From: Sphingomonas alba
GTDB taxonomy: Bacteria; Pseudomonadota; Alphaproteobacteria; Sphingomonadales; Sphingomonadaceae
Assembly (NCBI RefSeq): GCF_023516555.1
Contig: NZ_JAMGBD010000001.1
Coordinates: forward strand, 620,001 to 684,000
DNA length: 64,000 nucleotides
Direction: 5' to 3'
Position numbers and translations under genes: made by a program. Numbering within the stretch: the stretch's first letter is position 1; every line of letters begins with the position of its first letter. Below, piece by piece: positions 5,212 to 26,889 of the stretch. The notes under the pieces were generated by a model that was not told where the DNA came from, did not search any database, and worked only from the letters and a program-made list of their open reading frames with translations.

Positions 5212-6138
5212 TTAGCCCGCGACGCCGGCCTTCTTGGTGGCCCGGGTGCGTTTGGCCTTGTTGACCGGATCCAGCGGCCCGACCGGAGCGACCTTGCGCT
5301 TCGCCTCGGCCCAGATGTTCTGGTAGCTCAGATAGCCCAGGACCGTCCCGACCAGGAGGAACAGGAGCACCGCCCAGCCATAGTGATGGCGGTTCTCAAG
5401 CTTCGGCTCGGCCGTCCACACCAGGAACGCGGACACGTCCTTCGCCATCTGGTCGACCGTCGGCTTCGGATTGCCCTCGGCGTAAGTCACCTGACCATCG
5501 CTCACCAGCGGCTGCGGCATGGCGATGTTCAGATTGGCGAAATAGGGGTTGTAGTGCAGGCCCTGCGGCGTTTTCGCGCCCGGGAACTTCTTCACCAGCT
5601 CGGTTGGCTGGTTCCGGTAGCCCGTCAGGATCGAATAGACATAGGCCGCGCCGCCATGGCGCGCCTTGGTCATCAGCGACAAATCGGGCGGAAGCGCATT
5701 GTTGTTGGCCGCGCGCGCCGCGGTCTCATTGGCATAAGGCGCCGGGAAGTGATCCGCCGGCGTCGCCTTGCGGGTCGCGGGCTCGCCCGTGTCCGGATTG
5801 ACCGAGGGAACTTCGGTCGCCCACTGGTTGGCGATCGCCTTCACTTCGGCTTCCGAATAGCCAAGCTCATGCAGGTCCCGGAACGCCACCAGCTTCATCG
5901 AGTGGCAGGCCGAACAGACCTCCTTGTAGATCTGGAAGCCGCGCTGGACCTGCTGGCGGTCGAAGCTGCCAAACGGACCGTCGGACTGCAAATGCAGCGC
6001 CTTCGGATGGACGTGATATTCCTCCTCCGCCGTCGCTTCCGGCGGGGATTGAATGTTGCCGACCAGGTTCACGAAGAAACTGATCACCGCAACGCCGGCG
6101 AAGACTAGGCCGACAAGAAAGCCAAGAATACGGACCAT
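5212..6138 (-). CDS. petC: cytochrome c1 of the bc1 complex
   Basis: A 308-residue membrane-anchored c-type cytochrome, third gene of petABC. The heme is bound by CSACH (C75, C78, H79), with a probable axial Met in NIAMPQPL (M207). There is an N-terminal membrane segment (~4-27) and the usual C-terminal anchor (~253-273), then a Lys/Arg-rich cytoplasmic tail. It passes electrons from the Rieske protein to a soluble or membrane cytochrome c in the periplasm. It starts 15 bases after petB. The N-terminal segment may be retained or cleaved as a signal peptide. Confidence 0.97.
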   Translation of the reverse strand: MVRILGFLVGLVFAGVAVISFFVNLVGNIQSPPEATAEEEYHVHPKALHLQSDGPFGSFDRQQVQRGFQIYKEVCSACHSMKLVAFRDLHELGYSEAEVKAIANQWATEVPSVNPDTGEPATRKATPADHFPAPYANETAARAANNNALPPDLSLMTKARHGGAAYVYSILTGYRNQPTELVKKFPGAKTPQGLHYNPYFANLNIAMPQPLVSDGQVTYAEGNPKPTVDQMAKDVSAFLVWTAEPKLENRHHYGWAVLLFLLVGTVLGYLSYQNIWAEAKRKVAPVGPLDPVNKAKRTRATKKAGVAG

Positions 6139-6153
6139 GGTCCCCTGTTCCCC

Positions 6154-7446
6154 TTAATTCGCCGGCTTCGTCTGGCCGATGGGCGCGGCTTCCGCCTTCT
6201 CGCCGTGCAGCACGCTTTCCGAAATCGAGCTCGGCAGCGGCAGCGGCGTTTCGAACTTCGAAACGAGCGGCAGGATGATGAGGAAGTGCGCGAAATAATA
6301 AGCGGTCGCCAGCTGGCCGAGCGCGATGTTCAGCGGCGTGATCGGCGCGCCGCCGACATAGCCGAGCACCAGCACGTCGAGGATCAGCAGGCCGAAGAAG
6401 CGCTTGAACACCGGGCGATAGCTGCCCGACCGGACCGGCGACTTGTCGAGCCACGGCAGGAAGAACAGCAGCAGGATCGAGCCGAACATCGCCGTCACGC
6501 CCCACAGCTTGGCCGGGATGATGACGTCGACGGTGAAGCTGCGCAGGATCGCGTAGAATGGCCAGAAATACCATTCGGGCACGATGTGCGCCGGCGTCGC
6601 CAGCGGGTTGGCCGGAATGTAATTGTCCGGATGGCCCAGATAGTTCGGCGCGAAGAAGGTCAGCACGCAATAAGCGAACAACAGCGCACCGGCGAACCAG
6701 CCGTCCTTCGCCGTATAGAACGGGTGGAAGGGCAGCGTGTCCTTCTCGGTCTTCACATCGACGCCGGTCGGGTTGTTCGACCCCGGGATATGCAGCGCCC
6801 AGATGTGCAGGACCGTCACCGCCGCAATCACGAACGGCAGGAGGTAGTGCAGCGAGAAGAAGCGGGTCAGCGCCGCCTGGTCAGGCGCATAGCCGCCCAG
6901 CAACCAGACGCGGATCGGCTCGCCGACGACCGGGAAGGCCGAGAAGAAGCCGGTGATGACCTGCGCGCCCCAATAGCTCATCTGCCCCCAGGGCAGGACG
7001 TAGCCCATGAACGCCGTCGCCATCATCAGCAAATAGATGACGAGGCCGAGCATCCACACCAGCTCGCGCGGCGCCTTGTAGCTTCCGTAGAAGAGGCCGC
7101 GGAAGATGTGGACGTAGACGACGATGAAGAAGAAGCTGGCGCCGTTCATGTGCGCGTAGCGGAGCCACCAGCCCGCATTCACGTCGCGCATGATGTGCTC
7201 GATCGAATTGAAGGCGCCGTCCGCCGACGCATAATAATGCATCGCAAGCACGATGCCGGTGACGATCTGGACGGTCAGGAAGATGCCGGCGGCGACGCCG
7301 AAATTCCACCAGTAGTTCAGGTTGCGCGGCACCGGATAGCCGCCGCCGATCGCGCCGTAGACCAGGCGCGGAAGCGGCAGGCGCTCGTCGAACCAGCGGC
7401 CAAGGCCAGTCTTCGGTTCGTAGGGCTTTGCCCAGGCGAAACTCAT
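6154..7446 (-). CDS. petB: cytochrome b of the bc1 complex
   Basis: Integral membrane quinol-oxidising subunit, 430 residues from the ATG at 7446 ([11 protein letters not shown]). The four heme-ligating histidines are H99/H113 and H200/H214, both pairs spaced by 14 as expected for a bc1 cytochrome b. The Qo-site PEWY is at residues 290-293. About eight hydrophobic helices are visible, so this is the fused mitochondrial-type protein, not the split b6f form. The frame stays open upstream, but that stretch lies inside petA in another frame and is not expected to be translated. Sits between petA and petC with very short gaps. Confidence 0.98.
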
Positions 7447-7460
7447 CCCCGTTTTCCCCT

Positions 7461-8027
7461 TTAACCGATCGTCACGACAGTGTCGGACGTGAAGGCATAT
7501 TCCGGCACCTGCAGGTTCAGCGGCGCCGGTCCCTGGCGGATGCGGGCCGCCGTGTCGTAGGCCGATCCGTGGCACGGGCAGAAATAGCCGCCGAACGGAC
7601 CGCGGTTCTCGCCTTCGCCGGTGCCGAGCGGGATGCAGCCCAGATGGGTGCAGACGCCCATGGTGATCAGCCAGTTCATCTTGCCCGGCTTGGTGCGCTC
7701 GGCCAGCGTCTGCGGGTCGCGCAGGGTGCTGACATCGACGGCATTGGCCGCCGCGATTTCCTGCGGCGTCAGGTTGCGGACGAACACCGGCTGCTTGCGC
7801 CATACGGTCTTGATGGCCTGGCCAGGCGCGATCTTGGAAATGTCGACTTCGGTTGAAGCCAGCGCCAGCACGTCGGCCGACGGGCTCATCTGGCTGACCA
7901 GGGGCAGGACGACCGCGGCGGCGCCGACACCGGCAAAGCTCACTGCGGCGATGTTGATGAAATCACGGCGGCGAAGGCTGTGGTCCTCCCCCACCTGCGA
8001 GACCATATTTCCTTCTTGCGCGGCCAT
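7461..8027 (-). CDS. petA: Rieske iron-sulfur subunit of the bc1 complex
   Basis: A 188-residue 2Fe-2S protein, first gene of petABC. Cluster ligands are in CTHLGC (C126, H128, C131) and CPCH (C150, C152, H153). The N-terminus carries a twin-arginine-like SLRRRDFI followed by one hydrophobic helix (~24-45), as expected for Tat-dependent insertion with an uncleaved anchor. I chose the ATG at 8027 because AAGGGTGAGC stands just before it; a longer in-frame start at 8114 adds only an Arg-rich leader. The operon promoter probably lies within 8028-8153. Confidence 0.96.
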
Positions 8028-8153
8028 GCTCACCCTTAGAACGTCGGTTGCCAATGCCCGGACGGGCTTGAAAGCGTACGTCCGCGAGCGGCGTCGCCGT
8101 CGCGAAAGTTGCACGGCTGATAGCGGGCGGTTTTGGTGCTGCCAAGGGCGGAA

Positions 8154-9050
8154 TTATTGGGCTGCAACCTCTTCCGGCGTCAGCACTACCAACTCGCCTT
8201 TGCGTCCAATCCACGCCGAGCGCGCCATGACTGCGGCGGCGTAAAGAACGACGACGATCACGAGCCAGCGGAGCGTCTCGACAGGCATCTGCTTGACGAT
8301 CAAGGCGGCAACCAGGACGGCCGGAAGACCACCGAGCGTCAGGGCCAGGACAATCCTCAAGTCCATCTTTCCAATCTGGATGTGACGGACGCTGGCCGTC
8401 GCGCCCATAAGGCCGGCGCTCGCCGCCATGATCGGGAAGCAGAGCCGCGGATCCATTCCCATCAGGCTCAGCAGGACCAGCGTCGGCGCATAATTGCCGA
8501 CACCGAAATTCAGCAGGATGCCAAAGCCGAAGCTCGCCGCGATCGCGAGTATGGTGAGGCCCATTGGCAAGCCGGTTTCAGTGCCACCGCCGGGCATCAG
8601 GTGCAGGTTGGTGAGCGTGTACGCCGCGGCGGCTAGCGTCAGGCCGATCGCAACGATCATCTGAACCACCCAGACGCGCGACTTTGTCACCATCGGCGCT
8701 CCGAGCAGCCCTCCGACGACGCATGCAAGGATGCAGCCGACCAGCAGGACTGCGTCGACCCTCACTCCCAGCAGGATCAGGAAGATGAAGCCCTGCAGCA
8801 CCGCCGGTAGTGTCAGGCCGACCAGGATGGTTTGCGGAATGAGCGCATCCGGGACGATCTTGCGGAACTTGAGCCAGGCCGTGGTTGGCGCAAACGAACC
8901 GATCCCCAGCGTATCGAAAAAGCTGACGACCGCGCCGACGAGCAGCGCCTCGGGCCGTGGCGTCGCCTTCTGGCGAACGGCGGCGCGCAGGAGCGCCACC
9001 AGACAAACAATGGCGGCAAGCGTAATCGGAACGAGAAGCGCAATCAGCAT
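8154..9050 (-). CDS. TSUP-family (TauE/SafE-like) membrane permease
   Basis: A 298-residue polytopic protein with about eight hydrophobic segments and the N-terminal GAVVSFFDTLGIGSFAP block seen in the TauE/SafE/YfcA family. These permeases export or import small anions such as sulfite, sulfoacetate or other organosulfonates; this sequence does not settle the substrate. It is monocistronic, with its start 72 bases from the divergent tRNA methyltransferase gene. The C-terminus is short (LTPEEVAAQ). Confidence 0.85.
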   Translation of the reverse strand: MLIALLVPITLAAIVCLVALLRAAVRQKATPRPEALLVGAVVSFFDTLGIGSFAPTTAWLKFRKIVPDALIPQTILVGLTLPAVLQGFIFLILLGVRVDAVLLVGCILACVVGGLLGAPMVTKSRVWVVQMIVAIGLTLAAAAYTLTNLHLMPGGGTETGLPMGLTILAIAASFGFGILLNFGVGNYAPTLVLLSLMGMDPRLCFPIMAASAGLMGATASVRHIQIGKMDLRIVLALTLGGLPAVLVAALIVKQMPVETLRWLVIVVVLYAAAVMARSAWIGRKGELVVLTPEEVAAQ

Positions 9051-20549: not shown

Positions 20550-21248
20550 ATGTCCTGGACTGAAGAACGGATCGAGCGGCTAAAGTCGATGTGGTCGGAA
20601 GGCTCGACCGCTAGCCAGATTGCCGACGAGCTCGGCGGCGTCAGCCGCAATGCCGTCATCGGCAAAGCGCACCGCCTCGGCCTCGAAGCCCGCCCCTCGC
20701 CGGTGAAACCGGGCGAGGAGAAGGAAACGCCGAAGAAGGCAGCCAAGGCCGCCGCGCCGAAGGCCGCGAAAGCGCCCAAAGCGGAGCCGCCTGCCGCCGC
20801 CGCTAACGCCGCCGACGTCGCCCCGGGCGATGCGCCGGATGGCCCCGGCCCCGATCTTCCGTCGCAGGCGCCGCAGGCCCAGCGCCCGCAAGCGGCAACG
20901 CCCGACGCCACGCTCCAATATCGTTCGGTCGGCCCCGGCGGCTTTATCCGCCAGGGTCCCGGCGACACCCAGGCTCCAATTCCGCCGGCGCCCCCGCGTC
21001 GCCTGGTTCCGGCCAAGCCGAGCGCCGAGGTCGCCGACAAGACCAGCCTGCTGGACTTGAACGACCGCATTTGCCGCTGGCCGATCGGCCACCCGGGCGA
21101 GCCAGATTTCCATTTCTGCGGACAGTCGGCCAACCCAGGCTTTCCGTATTGCGTCCAGCATTGCGGCGTCGCCTATCAGGCGCAGCTTCCCCGCCGCGAC
21201 CGGCGCCCGCCACCGCCATTACCGTTCGGCGGGCCGCGCGTCCGCTAG
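20550..21248 (+). CDS. gcrA: GcrA-family cell-cycle regulator
   Basis: Alphaproteobacterial transcription factor that works with sigma-70 and CcrM-methylated GANTC sites to time the cell cycle. The N-terminus MSWTEERIERLKSMWSEG followed by TASQIADELGG and VSRNAVIGKAHRLGL is the diagnostic helix-turn-helix. A long Ala/Pro/Lys-rich linker (~55-165) leads to the C-terminal polymerase-binding part (DLNDRICRWPIGHPGEPDFHFCG...YCVQHC). 232 residues, longer than the Caulobacter protein because of the linker. Divergent from the ABC-2 permease gene with a 58-base gap. Confidence 0.95.
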   Translation: MSWTEERIERLKSMWSEGSTASQIADELGGVSRNAVIGKAHRLGLEARPSPVKPGEEKETPKKAAKAAAPKAAKAPKAEPPAAAANAADVAPGDAPDGPGPDLPSQAPQAQRPQAATPDATLQYRSVGPGGFIRQGPGDTQAPIPPAPPRRLVPAKPSAEVADKTSLLDLNDRICRWPIGHPGEPDFHFCGQSANPGFPYCVQHCGVAYQAQLPRRDRRPPPPLPFGGPRVR

Positions 21249-23065
21249 GCGCTAAGGAAAGCCCGGATCTCCCGCTCGAGCCCCGGCCAGGCTGACTCGT
21301 CGCCGAGCGGGACGTGGTTGCCGCTTTCGAACTCGAAATAGCGCGCGCCCTTGATGGCTTTGGCTACCTGGCGACCGGCATCGGCAGGCGCATTCCCATC
21401 CTTGTCTGCGTGACAGACAAGCGTCTCGGCTCTGATGTTCTTCAGCTCACAGCGCACGTCGATCCGCGAGGCAAGATCGATCATCGGCTCCATGTTCTTG
21501 ACTGGCCCGAGCGTCGCGAAATTCTCGTTGTGCCAGTCGATCAGCGCCGGGCTGGCTGACGGGAAATAGAGCGTGATGAACATCTCGCCCAATAGGCTGC
21601 GGCGGAATGCGGGCCGTTGCCGGTTCATCTCCAAGAGCGATTCGCGATAGGCGATTTCTTCGGGATCGGCACGTACACGCCAGCCCGCGGCGAAACTGTT
21701 GACCAGCACCAGCTTGCGCACCCGCTCCGGATTGCGGGCGGCAAACGCCATGGCGATCGCCGCCCCATGCGATATTCCCAGCAAGTCGCACTGTTCGATT
21801 CCCGCCGCATCCGCGACCGTTTCCAGGTCGCCGACCAGGTGCTCGAATGAGAATCCCGGCAGGTCCCAGTCCGACATGCCAAAGCCGCGCATGTCTTGCC
21901 GCACCAAGCGGTTCGCCCGTGAGCAGGCCTCGATCCAGTGGCCGTAAACAGGACTGTCCCAGTCGTGCTGGAGGTGCGTCATCCAGTTCGGCGCCTTGAG
22001 GATCGGGAAGCCCGTGCCGCATTCGGCGAAAGCAATCCGCGCCCCGTCGCCGGCCTTGCAGTACCTGATGGCATCCTTGGCAGGCGTCGGCGTGGGTGCG
22101 GGCGCAGCCGTCCCGGCCGCCGCATCCTCCGCCTCCATTCGCCGCCGCCAGGTCGCCGGCGGCTCGCCGAATTCGCGCTTGAAGGCGCGGTTGAACGCCG
22201 CCTCACTGTTGAATCCGACGGCGTACGCGATGTTGGCGGTGTTATGCCTGCCGTCACGGAGCATGTTTGCGGCCGACCGCATCCGCCAGCGTGCGCAGTA
22301 ACGCATCGGCGGCTCGCCCAGCAGCTCGACAAAGCGCTCGCCCAACACCGTCCGCGATACGCCGGCCTCGCGCGCGAGTCCTGCGATCGTCAGGTCCTCG
22401 GCATAGCGCGCGTGGATGATCGCCAGCGCCTTGGACACGGCAGGGTCGGCCAACCCCTTGATCCAGCCCTTGGCCCCAGCCGGCAGCTGCTCGATATATT
22501 CGCGCACGGCCTGCGTGAGGAATAGCTCGGCAAGGCGCGCCACAACCTCCTGCGAAGGTTTTTCTTCGGCGAGGAAACGCATCGAACTGTCGACCCACTC
22601 CTCCTGCCCGCTGGCGATATCGAGGGTCAGCATCGGCGGGAGCGCTTCAAGCAAGGGGTGGGACGTCTCGGCGTCCGTGCCCAGGAACCCGCACCAGATC
22701 TCCGTCGCCGGGCCTTCGCTCCCGACATTGACGCGGTGCGTGCCCTCCGCTGTCATCCAGCCGATGTCGTCAACTTCGGCGGGCTTCAGCCCCTTCCGGC
22801 TTTCCAGAAAATGGGGGTCGTTGCGCGGCAGCAGGACGATTTCGCCGGCGCGGACGGTCACCGCCGGCATCCCCTCCACTTCGACCATCAACTCGCCCGA
22901 GCGGACATAATGGTAGCTGATGAGCTTCCCGGGTTCAGGATAGAATGGCGCGAAATGCCGGGGCGTGAATTCGGCGTGGATGCAGAAGTCGCCGGTCATC
23001 TGGCCGTCTACGACCACGCCGCCGGTCAGGCGCAGCGAGCTTAGGATGTCAGTGAGAACGTCCAT
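21245..23065 (-). CDS. AraC-type regulator fused to alpha/beta hydrolase
   Basis: A 606-residue fusion. Residues ~1-130 are a cupin-like AraC sensor domain (HYVRSGELMVEVEG, VRAGEIVLLPRNDPH). Residues ~210-310 are an AraC helix-turn-helix pair ([21 protein letters not shown], then NIAYAVGFNSEAAFNRAFKREFG). A Pro/Ala linker (~312-330) joins a complete alpha/beta hydrolase (~333-606) with nucleophile elbow GISHG (S432), acid D554 or D556 and H584. Likely a sensor-regulator whose hydrolase part binds or cleaves the inducer. It faces the diiron-OsmC-MddA operon across 182 bases and is its most likely regulator. Its last bases overlap the gcrA stop. Confidence 0.9.
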   Translation of the reverse strand: MDVLTDILSSLRLTGGVVVDGQMTGDFCIHAEFTPRHFAPFYPEPGKLISYHYVRSGELMVEVEGMPAVTVRAGEIVLLPRNDPHFLESRKGLKPAEVDDIGWMTAEGTHRVNVGSEGPATEIWCGFLGTDAETSHPLLEALPPMLTLDIASGQEEWVDSSMRFLAEEKPSQEVVARLAELFLTQAVREYIEQLPAGAKGWIKGLADPAVSKALAIIHARYAEDLTIAGLAREAGVSRTVLGERFVELLGEPPMRYCARWRMRSAANMLRDGRHNTANIAYAVGFNSEAAFNRAFKREFGEPPATWRRRMEAEDAAAGTAAPAPTPTPAKDAIRYCKAGDGARIAFAECGTGFPILKAPNWMTHLQHDWDSPVYGHWIEACSRANRLVRQDMRGFGMSDWDLPGFSFEHLVGDLETVADAAGIEQCDLLGISHGAAIAMAFAARNPERVRKLVLVNSFAAGWRVRADPEEIAYRESLLEMNRQRPAFRRSLLGEMFITLYFPSASPALIDWHNENFATLGPVKNMEPMIDLASRIDVRCELKNIRAETLVCHADKDGNAPADAGRQVAKAIKGARYFEFESGNHVPLGDESAWPGLEREIRAFLSA

Positions 23066-23172
23066 TGGAGCCGTGCGAATCCACGATCCGGCGTTTCGGT
23101 CAATTTATCCGGCAGCGCAATCATTTTGGCAAACCGCGCCTTCACCTAGATAGCAGTGGTCACATTCGCAGG

Positions 23173-23206
23173 ACGAATTTTCGTTTCGGCAAGCAATGCT
23201 TCCGAA
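23173..23206. promoter_or_regulatory. adjacent palindromes in the divergent control region
   Basis: Two dyads stand side by side in the gap between the AraC fusion gene and the small-peptide gene: ACGAA-TT-TTCGT (23173-23184) and TTCGGcAAGC-AAT-GCTTCCGAA (23185-23206, one bulged base). They are 40-70 bases before the operon's first start codon, where an operator or activator site would be expected. AraC proteins more often use direct repeats, so the binding protein is not certain. Confidence 0.4.
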
Positions 23207-23247
23207 GATGAAGAGACGCGCCTCGGATAATTAAAAGGGGAATTTGA

Positions 23248-23361
23248 ATGGAAAACCATGATCTCAAGTCGTCGCAGGGTGCGATGATGCTTCTGTTTGC
23301 GTGCTTGTCTGCATTTTCGGCGGCCGCGACGACGATCGTGCCGTTGATCATCCACGCCTAA
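23248..23361 (+). CDS. 37-residue single-span membrane peptide
   Basis: A short frame reading MENHDLKSSQ, then a hydrophobic stretch from GAMMLLFACLSAF through IVPLIIHA to the stop. AAGGGG stands eight bases before the ATG, and the diiron gene follows after 21 bases with its own GGAG. The hydrophilic ten-residue head and ~25-residue apolar tail suggest a single membrane helix. Position as first gene of the operon argues that it is translated. No family recognised; it may be a membrane anchor or partner for the diiron protein, or a leader peptide. Confidence 0.6.
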   Translation: MENHDLKSSQGAMMLLFACLSAFSAAATTIVPLIIHA

Positions 23362-23382
23362 AAGAAATTCGGAGATAGATTA

Positions 23383-24288
23383 ATGTATCACGACTTCAAT
23401 TACGAAGCGACGCTGGCATCGTCCTTGCGCGCCGCCTGGAAGCTCGACGACGTTCTCGCCGAGGACCAGGAGCTGGATTTCACGCGCGACTTCATGCCCG
23501 ACAATCTGGTTCGCACCAATGAGCTCGACCAGCTCGGCCCGGCCGAGCAGCGCGTACTGAACCAGATTACGGGCAACACGTATCTGCACATCTTCGGCGT
23601 CGTCGAAGAGTTCATCCTGCCGTTCCTTATGGACCATGCGCGTGAAGTGCTTCGCGAGGACGATTACCGCGTCCGCGCCCTGCTGAACTTCGCGGCGGAA
23701 GAAGCCAAGCACATCCACCTGTTCAAGCGCTTCGCGGCGGCCTTCAATCGCGGCTTCCCGGTGGAATGCCAGGTGATCGGTCCGTCCGAAGCGATCGGCG
23801 CGGAAGTGCTGAAGCACGAGCCGCTGGCTGTCGCACTCGTGATCCTGATGATCGAGTGGATGACCCAGCAGCATTATCTCGGCAGCATCCGCGACGACAG
23901 CGACATCGACCCGCTCTTCAAGAGCCTGATGAAGCATCACTGGATGGAAGAAGCTCAGCACGCGAAGATCGATACGTTGATCGTCGAGGCGCTGGTCGAA
24001 GGAAAAACCGAAGCCGAGATCCAGGCTGCGATGGACGATTTCTTCGCCATCGGCGCCTTCCTCGACGGCGGGCTGGCCACGCAGACTGGCTTCAACCTGG
24101 ATGCGCTGGAAAAGATGATCGGCCGCAAGCTGGAAAACCGACAGCTGGTCGAACAGCAGCAGCACCAGGCGGCACGCTGGACTTTCGTCGGCTCCGGCAT
24201 GGTCCACCAGCGCTTCCGTGAAATCCTCGGCTCGATCTCGCCGGCGGCACTTGCCCGCATCGACGAGGCTGCGCCGACCTTTGCCTGA
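23383..24288 (+). CDS. ferritin-like diiron protein, probable oxygenase
   Basis: A 301-residue helical protein with the ligand pattern of a carboxylate-bridged diiron four-helix bundle: E75/E76 in VVEEF, E106-E107-x-x-H110 (EEAKH), E158 (MIEW), and E189-E190-x-x-H193 (EEAQH). This E/EExxH/E/EExxH layout is that of ferritin-like oxygenases and oxidases such as AurF or fatty-acid desaturase relatives. No membrane helix and no reductase domain. ATG preceded by GGAGAT. Reaction and substrate are unknown; the operon (OsmC, methyltransferases) hints at oxidation of a small thiol or aromatic compound. Not a known housekeeping ferritin. Confidence 0.7.
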   Translation: MYHDFNYEATLASSLRAAWKLDDVLAEDQELDFTRDFMPDNLVRTNELDQLGPAEQRVLNQITGNTYLHIFGVVEEFILPFLMDHAREVLREDDYRVRALLNFAAEEAKHIHLFKRFAAAFNRGFPVECQVIGPSEAIGAEVLKHEPLAVALVILMIEWMTQQHYLGSIRDDSDIDPLFKSLMKHHWMEEAQHAKIDTLIVEALVEGKTEAEIQAAMDDFFAIGAFLDGGLATQTGFNLDALEKMIGRKLENRQLVEQQQHQAARWTFVGSGMVHQRFREILGSISPAALARIDEAAPTFA

Positions 24289-24320
24289 ACACCAATCACT
24301 CAAAGAAGGGAAATTTTGAC

Positions 24321-24884
24321 ATGTTGAACTTCGTTTCCAATCCGCACACCAACGGTCTCGACCTCGCCGCCCTCGGTGAGATGGTCGAAGCCATCGAAAA
24401 GGATGCGAGCCTGGCGCAGGCCGGCTTCGCGGTCACCACACGCTGGTCGGGCCAGACCCGCAGCGAGACGGTGGTCGAAAGCTACAGCCTTGGCGGCAAG
24501 CGCATCGAGCGCCAGCACCGCATCGTTGCCGACGAGCCGTGCGAACTGCTCGGCACCGACAGTGCGCCGAACCCGCAGGAACTGCTCATGGCGGCGATCA
24601 ATGCCTGCATGACCGTCGGCTATGTCGCCAACGCGTCGCTTCGCGGCATCCGCCTCGATTCTGTCGAGATCCGGATGAACGGCACGCTCGACCTGCGCGG
24701 CTTCCTCGGCCTCAGCGACGATGTGCCGCCGGGTTACGAGAACGTCGACTATGACGTGATCATCAAGGGCGACGGTACGCCGGAGGATTTCGAGGAAATC
24801 CACCGCGCCGTGATGAAGACCTCGCCAAACTACTTCAACCTCAGCCGGCCCGTTCGCATGAACGGCACCCTCCACGTCGGTTGA
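24321..24884 (+). CDS. OsmC/Ohr-family protein with atypical cysteines
   Basis: A 187-residue OsmC-fold protein. The central helix NPQELLMAAINACMTVGYV has the family Glu (E87) and the peroxidatic-type Cys (C96). The second catalytic Cys normally found in a C-terminal SP-x-C motif is replaced (SPNYFNL). A different Cys, C74 in DEPCELLGTD, lies upstream and could substitute. OsmC/Ohr proteins reduce organic hydroperoxides with lipoyl or other thiols. AAGAAGGGA precedes the ATG. Third gene of the operon, 32 bases after the diiron gene. It may act on a thioester or persulfide and not a peroxide. Confidence 0.82.
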   Translation: MLNFVSNPHTNGLDLAALGEMVEAIEKDASLAQAGFAVTTRWSGQTRSETVVESYSLGGKRIERQHRIVADEPCELLGTDSAPNPQELLMAAINACMTVGYVANASLRGIRLDSVEIRMNGTLDLRGFLGLSDDVPPGYENVDYDVIIKGDGTPEDFEEIHRAVMKTSPNYFNLSRPVRMNGTLHVG

Positions 24885-24901
24885 CCCGGAGACCGCCGAG
24901 A

Positions 24902-25016
24902 GCAGTCGGGGGCTTGCCTGAGCAAGTCCCCGGCTGGTCGAGAGACGGTTCCGGGCGGCCGGCCAACACGCCCCGGGCGTGATTGGACCGACGTCACGCG
25001 ATTCACTCGCGTGACG
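24902..25016 (+). repeat. multi-hairpin repeat element, copy A
   Basis: In the 152-base gap between the OsmC and methyltransferase genes. It has hairpin 1 (GGGGG-CTTGC/GCAAG-TCCCC, 24908-24931), a GTCGAGAGAC strand, GGCCGGCC, hairpin 2 (CACGCC/GGCGTG, 24967-24981), GGACCGACGTC, and hairpin 3 (CGTCACGCGA-ttcac-TCGCGTGACG, 24992-25016). Copies B and C (near 40.0 and 40.9 kb) have the same order with different stem bases. Confidence 0.7.
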
Positions 25017-25036
25017 CCTCCGTTGAAGGAATTCAA

Positions 25037-25864
25037 ATGACCGATACTGCTGTTATCAATCCCAACAAGGCGCTCTGGGAAAAGGGCGACTTCACCCGCA
25101 TTGCCGAAACCATGCGCCAATCCGGGCAGGAGCTGGTCGATACGCTCGGCATCCGCCCAGGCATGAAAGTGCTCGATCTCGGTTCCGGCGACGGCACCAC
25201 GGCCATCCCTGCCGCAGAATATGGCGCCGTCGTGCTCGGCGTTGATATTGCCGAAAATCTCGTCGCCGCCGGCAACGTCCGCGCGGAACAGGCAGGCCTC
25301 GACAATCTGCGCTTCGAGCAGGGCGATGCCTCGAACCTCGCCGAGTTGGAGGACGAGAGCTTCGGCCTCGTCGTCAGCATCTTCGGCGCCATGTTCGCGC
25401 CGCGTCCTGACGATGTCGCCAGAGAGATGGTGCGAGTCACCCGTCCCGGCGGCCGCATTGTCATGGGCAACTGGATCCCTGGCGATCCGACGCTCGTCGC
25501 GCAAATCCTGAAGATCAGCGCCGCCTACACGCCGCCCCCGCCCGAAGGTTTTGTCAGCCCCATGACCTGGGGTGATGAGACCATTGTCCGCCAGCGCTTC
25601 ACCGCGGCGGGGATCGCCGACAAGGACATCCAGTTCGAGAAGAACAGCTGGTTCTTCCGTGAGGATGGCCCGCCGGAGCACCTCTTCGAGATTTTCCGCG
25701 ACTATTACGGGCCGACCATGAACGCCTTCGCCGCCGCCGCAAAGGACGGTCGCGAATGCCAGCTCGACCAGGAACTGCGCGCCTTGTTCGTTGCCCAGAA
25801 CAAGGGCGGCGAACGCACCGAAATCCCGGCGACCTTCCTGAAAGTGACGGTCGGCAAGAGATGA
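25037..25864 (+). CDS. class I SAM-dependent methyltransferase
   Basis: A 275-residue Rossmann methyltransferase. Motif I is VLDLGSGDGTTA (residues 45-56), the acidic end of strand 2 is GVDIAENLV, and VRVTRPGGRIVMGNWIPG is the post-III block of the UbiE/Methyltransf_11 group. Start ATG at 25037 with GAAGGA upstream. The 3' end overlaps the small downstream gene by ATGA. In this operon the substrate is probably a small molecule (thiol, phenol or quinone); sequence alone does not decide. Confidence 0.85.
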   Translation: MTDTAVINPNKALWEKGDFTRIAETMRQSGQELVDTLGIRPGMKVLDLGSGDGTTAIPAAEYGAVVLGVDIAENLVAAGNVRAEQAGLDNLRFEQGDASNLAELEDESFGLVVSIFGAMFAPRPDDVAREMVRVTRPGGRIVMGNWIPGDPTLVAQILKISAAYTPPPPEGFVSPMTWGDETIVRQRFTAAGIADKDIQFEKNSWFFREDGPPEHLFEIFRDYYGPTMNAFAAAAKDGRECQLDQELRALFVAQNKGGERTEIPATFLKVTVGKR

Positions 25865-26025
25865 GGCACACATTGATGAGTCACGCCTACCCTGACATCG
25901 TCAGGCAGTGGGCCGCCGATCGTGAACCGCAGAAAGCCAGCAAGATTGGCTTTGCGACCCGCGTCGCAGCACTGTTCGCCAGGCTTCAACCTGATAAACT
26001 GCTCGACGTGATCCGAGTCTTTTGA
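25861..26025 (+). CDS. 54-residue protein coupled to the methyltransferase
   Basis: A short frame beginning MRHTLMSHAYPDIVRQWAAD, whose ATG overlaps the methyltransferase stop codon (ATGA). A second ATG lies 15 bases later. The chain is basic and amphipathic (RVAALFARLQPDKLLDVIRVF at the end), with no signal or membrane segment. It is followed by a GGAGG site for the mddA-like gene. The overlap and the open frame between two operon genes support translation; the family is unrecognised. Confidence 0.55.
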   Translation: MRHTLMSHAYPDIVRQWAADREPQKASKIGFATRVAALFARLQPDKLLDVIRVF

Positions 26026-26056
26026 CCGCGCTCGTTGAGCCTTTGGAGGCACAACC

Positions 26057-26839
26057 ATGACCAATCCAGATTTGTCTAAGTCCGGAACCGGTGTGTTCGC
26101 GTTCGGAATCTTGAGCTACGCCGTCTTCTTCGCCGTGTTCCTGTACGCGATCGGCTTCATCGGCGGCTTTTTCACGCCCACCACCCTCGACGGGACACCG
26201 ACCGGCCCGGTCGAAAAGGCGCTGGCGATTGATATCGGCCTGCTCGGCCTTTTCGCGGTCCAGCACAGCGTCATGGCCCGTCCCGCATTCAAGCGCTGGT
26301 GGACGACCATCGTGCCGGAAGCAGCGGAGCGCAGCATGTACGTGCTGCTGAGTTCACTGGCGCTCGTCGCGCTCTTCACCTTCTGGCAGCCGATAGGCGG
26401 TATCATCTGGGACGCACCGGATGGCTGGGCGCGCAACACGGTCATCGGCATCTACCTGCTTGGCTGGGTGCTATTGCTCTACACGACCTTCCTGATCGAC
26501 CATTTCGACCTGTTCGGCCTGCGTCAGTCGTGGAATCGGTTGAAGGGCAATAAATATACTCCTCCGCAATTCTACACGCCGAGCCTGTATCGCATTGTCC
26601 GCCATCCGCTTTACGTCGGTTGGCTGACGATTTTCTGGGCGGCGCCGACGATGACCGTGTCCCACCTGGTCTTCGCGCTTGCGACCACGGCTTACATCCT
26701 GATCGCCATTCAGCTTGAAGAACGCGACCTCGTTGATGCGTTTGGCGAGCGCTACGTCGAATATCGCAAGCGGACGCCGATGCTGCTGCCGCGCCTATGG
26801 CGGCGTCGAGAAGAACCAACGACGGCCGCCAAGGCTTGA
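26057..26839 (+). CDS. mddA: MddA-like methanethiol S-methyltransferase (NnrU/ICMT fold)
   Basis: A 260-residue integral membrane methyltransferase of the isoprenylcysteine-methyltransferase/NnrU fold. Five or six hydrophobic helices surround the SAM-binding pattern YRIVRHPLYVGW (R182-H183-P184) and the later EERDL (E221-E222) and RYVEYRKR motifs. FAVQHSVMARPAFKRWW and HFDLFGLRQ match, from memory, the MddA branch that methylates methanethiol to dimethyl sulfide. GGAGG precedes the ATG. Last gene of the operon, followed by a terminator. Substrate is inferred, not proven; other thiols are possible. Confidence 0.8.
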   Translation: MTNPDLSKSGTGVFAFGILSYAVFFAVFLYAIGFIGGFFTPTTLDGTPTGPVEKALAIDIGLLGLFAVQHSVMARPAFKRWWTTIVPEAAERSMYVLLSSLALVALFTFWQPIGGIIWDAPDGWARNTVIGIYLLGWVLLLYTTFLIDHFDLFGLRQSWNRLKGNKYTPPQFYTPSLYRIVRHPLYVGWLTIFWAAPTMTVSHLVFALATTAYILIAIQLEERDLVDAFGERYVEYRKRTPMLLPRLWRRREEPTTAAKA

Positions 26840-26859: not shown

Positions 26860-26889
26860 GGGCTCCGGATTTCCGGGGCCCTTTTTCTT
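26860..26889 (+). terminator. rho-independent terminator closing the mddA operon
   Basis: GGGCTCCGG-attt-CCGGGGCCC, a 9-bp stem with one G-T pair, followed directly by TTTTTCTT. It separates the operon from the M16 peptidase gene. Confidence 0.92.

What the first reader, a model, noticed from the sequence alone, without database searches (positions are those of the whole stretch)
21245..26839. Possible new inducible unit: AraC-hydrolase regulator facing a diiron/OsmC/methyltransferase/MddA operon
Seen: an AraC-alpha/beta hydrolase fusion is divergent from six tightly spaced genes encoding a 37-aa membrane peptide, a diiron EExxH protein, an OsmC protein, a SAM methyltransferase, a 54-aa protein and an MddA-type membrane methyltransferase, closed by a terminator. 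Known: MddA proteins methylate methanethiol to dimethyl sulfide; OsmC proteins use thiol chemistry; diiron proteins activate O2. Inference: one pathway that oxidises and then methylates a small (perhaps thiol or sulfur) compound, with the hydrolase domain sensing or clearing the inducer. I know of no named system with this set.
Basis: partly seen in the sequence, partly recalled or inferred. Interest (0 to 1): 0.75.

Follow-up and report, generated by a model that had tools for sequence, protein, structure and literature searches.

The report
Hydrolase-sensor-controlled diiron/OsmC stress operon
A soil-type bacterium carries a conserved gene set in which a regulator with a built-in enzyme-like sensor probably switches on an oxygen-using iron enzyme, a one-cysteine protein related to those of garlic-toxin tolerance clusters, and (here) a gene family that turns smelly thiols into dimethyl sulfide.

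Summary
The core, a regulator with a fused alpha/beta-hydrolase (H) domain divergent from a small membrane peptide, an AurF-type diiron protein and OsmC, is a conserved unit. Of 42 AurF loci, 34 have OsmC and 28 an H domain beside AurF; 6 more distant loci have neither. In 298 family genomes AurF occurs in 14, all also carrying OsmC and H. The same H domain is fused to AraC, BTAD/SARP, OmpR-type or TIR domains. A one-helix peptide precedes AurF in 28 of 33 sphingomonad loci. MddA is beside AurF only here (1 of 42), yet three congeners have an AraC-H regulator divergent from MddA with a matching element: MddA and AurF-OsmC look like alternative outputs of one sensor type. The OsmC has one conserved cysteine and belongs to a subfamily found in plasmid clusters resembling published allicin/thiosulfinate-tolerance islands. 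Best reading: an inducible unit against reactive organosulfur or thiol compounds. Unit: about 0.9; chemistry: about 0.4. No substrate, inducer, binding or transcript is shown.

The parts
21245..23065 (-). AraC-type regulator fused to an alpha/beta hydrolase (606 aa): Cupin_6 aa 2-192, HTH_18 aa 230-309, hydrolase (H) domain about aa 336-606 with Ser432/Asp556/His584
23090..23124 (+). operator-like element between the divergent genes (binding by the AraC part is inferred)
   Evidence: near-invariant block in 7 aligned loci; found at most AraC-type loci; pattern search 31 sites in 23 of 71 genomes, reversed control 0 of 71
23248..23361 (+). 37-aa single-helix membrane peptide (p37)
   Evidence: positional equivalent directly upstream of AurF in 28 of 33 sphingomonad loci, shuffles 0.9%, antisense 2 of 33, 0 of 9 other loci (an earlier, different setting gave 24 of 42)
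23383..24288 (+). AurF-family diiron protein (301 aa); E75/E76, E107, H110, E158, H186, E190, H193 invariant
24321..24884 (+). OsmC-family protein with one conserved Cys (Cys96)
   Evidence: PF02566; Cys96 34/34, no second conserved Cys; 52-55% identical to OsmC of four plasmid redox clusters
24908..25016 (.). inverted repeats in the 152-bp OsmC-methyltransferase gap
   Evidence: perfect 10-bp arms 24992-25001/25007-25016; a second hairpin 24908-24931 read by eye from the sequence
25037..25864 (+). class I SAM methyltransferase (275 aa), unknown substrate
   Evidence: Methyltransf_11 E 1.4e-19; homologue in 10 of 42 AurF loci
25861..26025 (+). 54-aa ORF overlapping the methyltransferase stop
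   Evidence: N-terminus recurs in L031, L032, L034, L047; no Pfam or NCBIfam match
26057..26839 (+). MddA-type membrane thiol S-methyltransferase
   Evidence: NF045656 327 bits against cut-off 270; 76% identical gene in G332 between the same flanking genes
26860..26889 (+). intrinsic-terminator-like hairpin with T-run
   Evidence: 9 pairs, 8 G-C

Best explanation
An inducible unit that deals with a small reactive compound, most likely a thiol or thiosulfinate-type organosulfur. Shown by comparison: a conserved set of hydrolase-domain (H) regulator, small membrane peptide, AurF-type diiron protein and one-Cys OsmC, with optional methyltransferase and MddA. Inferred steps: the H domain binds (and may slowly hydrolyse) the inducer, as the alpha/beta-hydrolase receptors RsbQ and D14 do (recalled); the AraC part then activates the promoter through the 23090-23124 element; the diiron protein oxygenates the compound; the single Cys of OsmC captures or reduces thiol-reactive or peroxidic species; the methyltransferases cap released thiols (MddA: methanethiol-type thiols to sulfides). 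MddA and AurF-OsmC are alternative or additive disposal routes of one kind of regulon, joined in one operon only in this genome among those examined.
For: Co-occurrence: 14/14 AurF genomes carry OsmC and H among 298; 34 of 42 AurF loci have OsmC, 28 of 42 an H domain. Constant H, changing DNA-binding part: AraC, BTAD and OmpR-type. In the genus 21 of 24 H-domain loci lie next to AurF (17), MddA (3) or OsmC without AurF (1). Element at AraC-type AurF, OsmC and MddA loci; none in AurF-bearing G238, G304, G313, whose AurF loci lack this AraC; reversed control 0 of 71. Within sphingomonad AraC-type loci, 18 of 18 with AurF have an added sensor (16 H, 2 LysR-substrate; in L030 and L035 the regulator frame is interrupted), while 4 of 4 without intact AurF have none. 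The OsmC subfamily sits in TetR/OsmC/alkene-reductase/AhpD-type/SDR plasmid clusters that share most genes with published allicin-resistance islands (PMC7119367, passages) and with the alt cluster's altJ/osmC (PMC9933511, passages). MddA passes its equivalog cut-off. L039 has a homocysteine S-methyltransferase and an SBP56 (methanethiol oxidase family) gene near the unit.
Against: MddA is beside AurF in 1 of 42 loci and not associated with AurF at genome level. Six further, more distant AurF loci (47% and 31-33% identity) have neither OsmC nor H; L069 and L070 among them have the AraC without H. In the wider family 14 of 18 H-domain loci not beside AurF were opened: OsmC beside 1, MddA beside none, so H is not specific to this unit. 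Known AurF-family enzymes named in PMC9478400 (AurF, CmlI, AzoC, DnfA; passages) act on nitrogen, none on sulfur. OsmC function in allicin islands was not itself demonstrated (no Tn insertions found in osmC, overexpression lines not recovered). Related OsmC also sits beside a molybdenum hydroxylase (L122) and a TonB receptor/Rieske/MFS-like set (L076). SBP56 is at 1 locus and homocysteine S-methyltransferase at 2, one a broken remnant: post hoc. The sensor/AurF link (18 of 18 against 4 of 4) is also post hoc. No transcript, ligand or activity data.
Confidence: 0.4

Rival explanations
1. N-oxygenation unit: the AurF-type enzyme oxidises an amine or hydroxylamine (own or foreign), the H domain senses an ester, lactone or amide precursor, OsmC removes peroxides made by uncoupled diiron turnover, and the methyltransferases are incidental.
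For: Ligand pattern as in AurF, CmlI and DnfA (ligand list in PMC9478400) and AurF/CmlI as clearly best structural matches; every characterised family member named in that paper works on nitrogen; BTAD/SARP regulators are typical of secondary metabolism (recalled).
Against: No recognisable biosynthetic genes in the unit; MddA shares regulator type and element in 3 further genomes; OsmC persists without AurF (L075, L077, L109, L114, L116, L117).
Confidence: 0.3
2. General electrophile/peroxide response: the regulator senses lipid or xenobiotic breakdown products (esters, lactones, quinones), OsmC is a one-Cys organic peroxidase and AurF an O2/peroxide scavenger; MddA and MT are passengers.
For: OsmC clusters on plasmids also contain alkene reductase and AhpD-type genes, which can act on many electrophiles (recalled); RclR (reactive-chlorine sensor) is among the best NCBIfam matches of the AraC part, far below its cut-off (85 against 400 bits).
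Against: No second Cys; the MddA link through regulator and element is specific.
Confidence: 0.2
3. The gene set is a chance or purely local assemblage: neighbours kept by vertical inheritance with no shared function.
For: In the genus the locus sits between GcrA and Hsp20 in many species, so adjacency there is partly inherited; MT, p54 and MddA are patchy; six distant AurF loci lack OsmC and H.
Against: AurF-OsmC recurs in MAGs of other phyla and on a Nostoc plasmid, and in sphingomonads under several regulator types.
Confidence: 0.07
4. The 23090-23124 element is not an operator but the start of a short conserved leader peptide (M-T/I-x-L-P-D-x-L-T-E-T-P) read towards the regulator.
For: The minus strand reads as such a peptide in most loci (by eye).
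Against: The third codon varies freely, the frame to the regulator start differs between loci, and the element also stands before or near unrelated genes (cupredoxin in L113; RTX-type proteins in L115 and L120).
Confidence: 0.15

Closest known systems
AurF / CmlI / AzoC / DnfA diiron N-oxygenases (Pfam PF11583)
   Different: 14% identity in the structural alignment; substrate unknown; paired with OsmC and an H-domain regulator; no FNR-type reductase gene in the unit, unlike dnfB
Allicin/thiosulfinate-tolerance clusters (PfAR-1 islands; Pantoea alt cluster)
   Same: OsmC of the same one-Cys subfamily as in plasmid clusters that resemble them (52-55% identity)
   Different: None of the seven window products is TetR, DsbA, alkene reductase, AhpD, Trx or SDR; it has AurF, an H-domain regulator and MddA
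MddA methanethiol S-methyltransferase
   Same: Passes the NCBIfam equivalog cut-off
   Different: In an operon with AurF-OsmC-MT; most of the 16 other congeneric MddA neighbourhoods opened look like Suf or housekeeping loci by my reading of neighbour sequences
RsbQ and plant D14/KAI2 hydrolase receptors
Ohr/OsmC thiol peroxidases
   Same: OsmC domain, nucleophilic Cys and preceding Glu kept (roles recalled)
   Different: No second (resolving) Cys

Membership tests
AurF family (PF11583) | Pfam gathering score | tested here: met
   39.4 against 29.6 bits
AurF family (PF11583) | 4 carboxylate + 3 His diiron ligands with the E..ExxH..E..HxxxExxH pattern | tested here: met
   E75/E76, E107, H110, E158, H186, E190, H193 invariant in 15 rows; pattern as given for DnfA, AurF, CmlI in PMC9478400 (passages); which of E75/E76 is the ligand was not resolved
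AurF family (PF11583) | N-oxygenase activity | not testable with these tools
   -
MddA (NF045656) | curated equivalog cut-off | tested here: met
   327.3 against 270 bits
MddA (NF045656) | methanethiol methylation to DMS | not testable with these tools
   -
Ohr/OsmC two-Cys thiol peroxidase | OsmC domain with nucleophilic Cys | tested here: met
   Cys96 34/34
Ohr/OsmC two-Cys thiol peroxidase | second (resolving) Cys | tested here: not met
   no other column with Cys in more than 7 of 34 rows
Allicin/thiosulfinate-tolerance cluster | OsmC of the cluster subfamily | tested here: met
   52-55% identity to cluster OsmC of B. cepacia, E. coli, Acinetobacter, Sphingobium plasmids; that these plasmid clusters are such clusters rests on gene content
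Allicin/thiosulfinate-tolerance cluster | DsbA, alkene reductase, AhpD, TetR, Trx, SDR genes | tested here: not met
   none among the seven gene products; the rest of the window was not scanned for them
AraC/XylS regulators | HTH_18 DNA-binding domain | tested here: met
   PF12833 76.3 bits
Dirammox dnf cluster | dnfA with adjacent dnfB (FNR) and dnfC (amidotransferase) | tested here: not met
   no such product among the seven genes
Alpha/beta-hydrolase receptors (RsbQ/D14 type) | hydrolase fold with intact Ser-Asp-His triad | tested here: met
Alpha/beta-hydrolase receptors (RsbQ/D14 type) | ligand binding drives signalling | not testable with these tools

The most novel reading that the evidence does not exclude
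The hydrolase domain is a portable small-molecule receptor that bacteria move between AraC, SARP, OmpR-type and TIR chassis, and in sphingomonads it defines an organosulfur-sensing regulon in which methylation (MddA) and diiron/one-Cys-OsmC oxidation are interchangeable disposal routes: the AurF branch would be a diiron enzyme acting on sulfur rather than nitrogen, with a dedicated one-helix membrane microprotein.
Probability: 0.22. Interest if true: 0.8.

Novelty: new variant of a known kind. Interest (0 to 1): 0.6.

Why it matters
It gives a compact, testable regulon with a computed regulator-element pair, links an AurF-type oxygenase with a one-Cys OsmC whose subfamily also occurs in clusters resembling plant-thiosulfinate tolerance islands, and suggests that an alpha/beta-hydrolase domain acts as a swappable sensor in bacteria, the logic used by plant strigolactone receptors (recalled). 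If the sulfur reading holds, it adds a regulated soil route for volatile thiols and dimethyl sulfide.

Tried and rejected
Whole seven-gene set as one conserved operon: rejected (MddA 1 of 42 AurF loci, MT 10 of 42). AurF-MddA genome-level association: none (Fisher p = 0.58; of the 27 genomes with an MddA hit at E<=1e-5 I dropped G313 and G346, whose only hits are 29-31 bits, and kept G326, whose hit is in two pieces). First operator search used a wrong spacer (7 instead of 6 N), gave 0 of 71 and is discarded; the corrected one is. Of its 31 sites, 6 have 3 mismatches; apart from G351's, these were not looked at. Peptide scan: the first setting (ATG/GTG starts, 24-70 aa, hydropathy >=1.8) gave 24 of 42 loci; I then widened starts, tightened position and lowered the cut to 1.7 (28 of 33 sphingomonad, 0 of 9 other). 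Sigma-70 promoter scan: 0 found, 1.4 expected. Phage or defence links: none useful (PADLOC's mads_2 match of the methyltransferase covers its generic domain only). PDB sequence search for AurF: nothing meaningful; only fold comparison shows AurF/CmlI. My greedy gene caller missed or mis-called some genes (for example the regulator of L108); one search settled that case by tblastn. Literature: AurF+OsmC gave 0 papers; searches around hydrolase-fused regulators listed no paper whose title or opening abstract describes such a regulator, and none of those was opened; I do not claim that the combination is unpublished beyond these searches of the held library. DMS/MddA papers: listings only; the 2015 MddA paper is not held. 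'UrcA-like' (L031, L034) and 'CadC-type' are my labels; Pfam gave no match for the former and only Trans_reg_C for the latter. The alignment A1 left out L035 of the 15 loci because its frame is split.


Full report
What is there. The window (a sphingomonad by its relatives: S. daechungensis and S. hankyongi hold 75% and 74% identical AurF proteins) carries the seven genes as described. The regulator has Cupin_6, HTH_18 and an alpha/beta hydrolase (H) domain. The diiron protein is an AurF-family member (PF11583). The next genes encode an OsmC protein and a Methyltransf_11 protein; the last passes the MddA equivalog cut-off. A hairpin with T-run closes the set.

Is it a unit? AurF homologues occur in 14 of 298 family genomes at E<=1e-5, OsmC at E<=1e-40 in 16 and H domains at E<=1e-50 in 28. 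All 14 AurF genomes have both; Fisher p = 3e-22 and 1e-16, not corrected for relatedness; in G113 the H domain is elsewhere in the genome. I compiled 42 distinct AurF loci (33 sphingomonad including the window, 9 from MAGs labelled otherwise; three duplicates dropped): OsmC is present in 34, an H domain in 28, the methyltransferase in 10, MddA in 1. The nine include MAGs labelled Chloracidobacterium, Blastocatellia, Planctomycetota, Rokubacteriota and Methylomirabilota; OsmC is beside AurF in five of the nine (in the Planctomycetota one on the other strand). A Nostoc plasmid has OsmC followed by AurF. Not in that count: six more distant loci (L068-L073), none with OsmC or H. In a sample of the phylum AurF is rare: 7 of 398 genomes at E<=1e-10, the window's own included.

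An element for the regulator. A near-invariant block lies upstream of the AraC gene in seven aligned loci and in most other AraC-type loci. A pattern from it, up to 3 mismatches, hits 31 sites in 23 of 71 congeneric genomes; the reversed pattern hits none. Of the 25 sites with at most 2 mismatches, 14 are at AraC-regulated AurF loci, 4 at AraC-OsmC loci without intact AurF, 2 between an AraC-H regulator and MddA (G325, G335), and 5 elsewhere: a cupredoxin gene in the window's own genome (L113), two near RTX-type genes and two others. G351 has the AraC-H/MddA arrangement with a 3-mismatch site. AurF-bearing G238, G304 and G313, whose AurF loci lack this AraC, have no site. That the AraC protein binds the element is inference.

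MddA. Across 71 congeners AurF is in 19, full-length-type MddA in 25, both in 8 (p = 0.58). Of 24 H-domain loci in the genus, 17 are beside AurF, 3 beside MddA, 1 beside OsmC without AurF, 3 beside neither. Most of the 16 MddA neighbourhoods that I opened look like Suf or housekeeping loci by my reading. Three have a divergent AraC-H regulator, here without the cupin. In G332 a 76% identical MddA lies between GcrA and Hsp20, the genes that flank AurF operons in relatives, facing an OmpR-domain regulator whose only other copy in the genus at E<=1e-100 (67-68% identity) faces AurF-OsmC-MT in G197. Shared regulator types with no genome-level association suggest alternative outputs rather than consecutive steps.

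The membrane peptide. A one-helix ORF of 28-51 aa ends just before AurF in 28 of 33 sphingomonad loci, under AraC, BTAD and OmpR-type regulators; shuffles give 0.9%, antisense 2 of 33, other bacteria 0 of 9 (settings were changed after a first run). I regard p37 as a genuine component.

Verdict. The unit is real (about 0.9) and was not found described in the searches made. Its most likely role is an inducible response to thiol or thiosulfinate-type organosulfur compounds (about 0.4), with nitrogen oxygenation as the main rival (0.3).

Noticed in passing
L111:5259-6518 (-) and L078:5330-6577 (+): TIR domain fused to the same type of alpha/beta-hydrolase domain; PADLOC gives weak TIR matches to defence proteins. 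Could be a defence or signalling protein.
   Followed up: partly
L113:5111-5145 and 5219-5599 (window genome, contig 2): A one-mismatch copy of the operator-like element stands before a small cupredoxin gene, a possible second target of the regulator in this genome.
   Followed up: partly
L115:3771-5045 and L120:4160-5092: The element also stands near RTX-type calcium-binding protein genes in two genomes that also carry the AraC-H unit.
   Followed up: no
L077:6252-6449 and L116:5843-6019: Short ORFs of 65 and 58 aa that look like AurF remnants sit between regulator and OsmC in G197 and G342, both of which hold a complete AurF unit elsewhere.
   Followed up: partly
L033, 898-aa ORF on the - strand over about 6005-8695: One regulator gene encodes AraC plus two tandem hydrolase domains; the second has Cys in place of the nucleophilic Ser.
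   Followed up: partly
L031, L034: AraC fused to a LysR substrate-binding domain in place of the hydrolase; a small UrcA-like ORF (my label) stands where OsmC is elsewhere.
   Followed up: partly
L042:3651-3998 and L068:8501-8797: SCO4226-like small protein next to AurF homologues in two Proteobacteria.
   Followed up: no
L075:7483-8226 and L046:13305-14027: A glutaredoxin-MauE fusion (81% identical between the two) lies within a few kb of the OsmC/H locus of G057 and of the AurF locus of G318.
   Followed up: no
L069, L070: A distant AurF subfamily (about 31-33% identity) is divergent from an AraC-type regulator related to the window's AraC part but without hydrolase domain.
   Followed up: no
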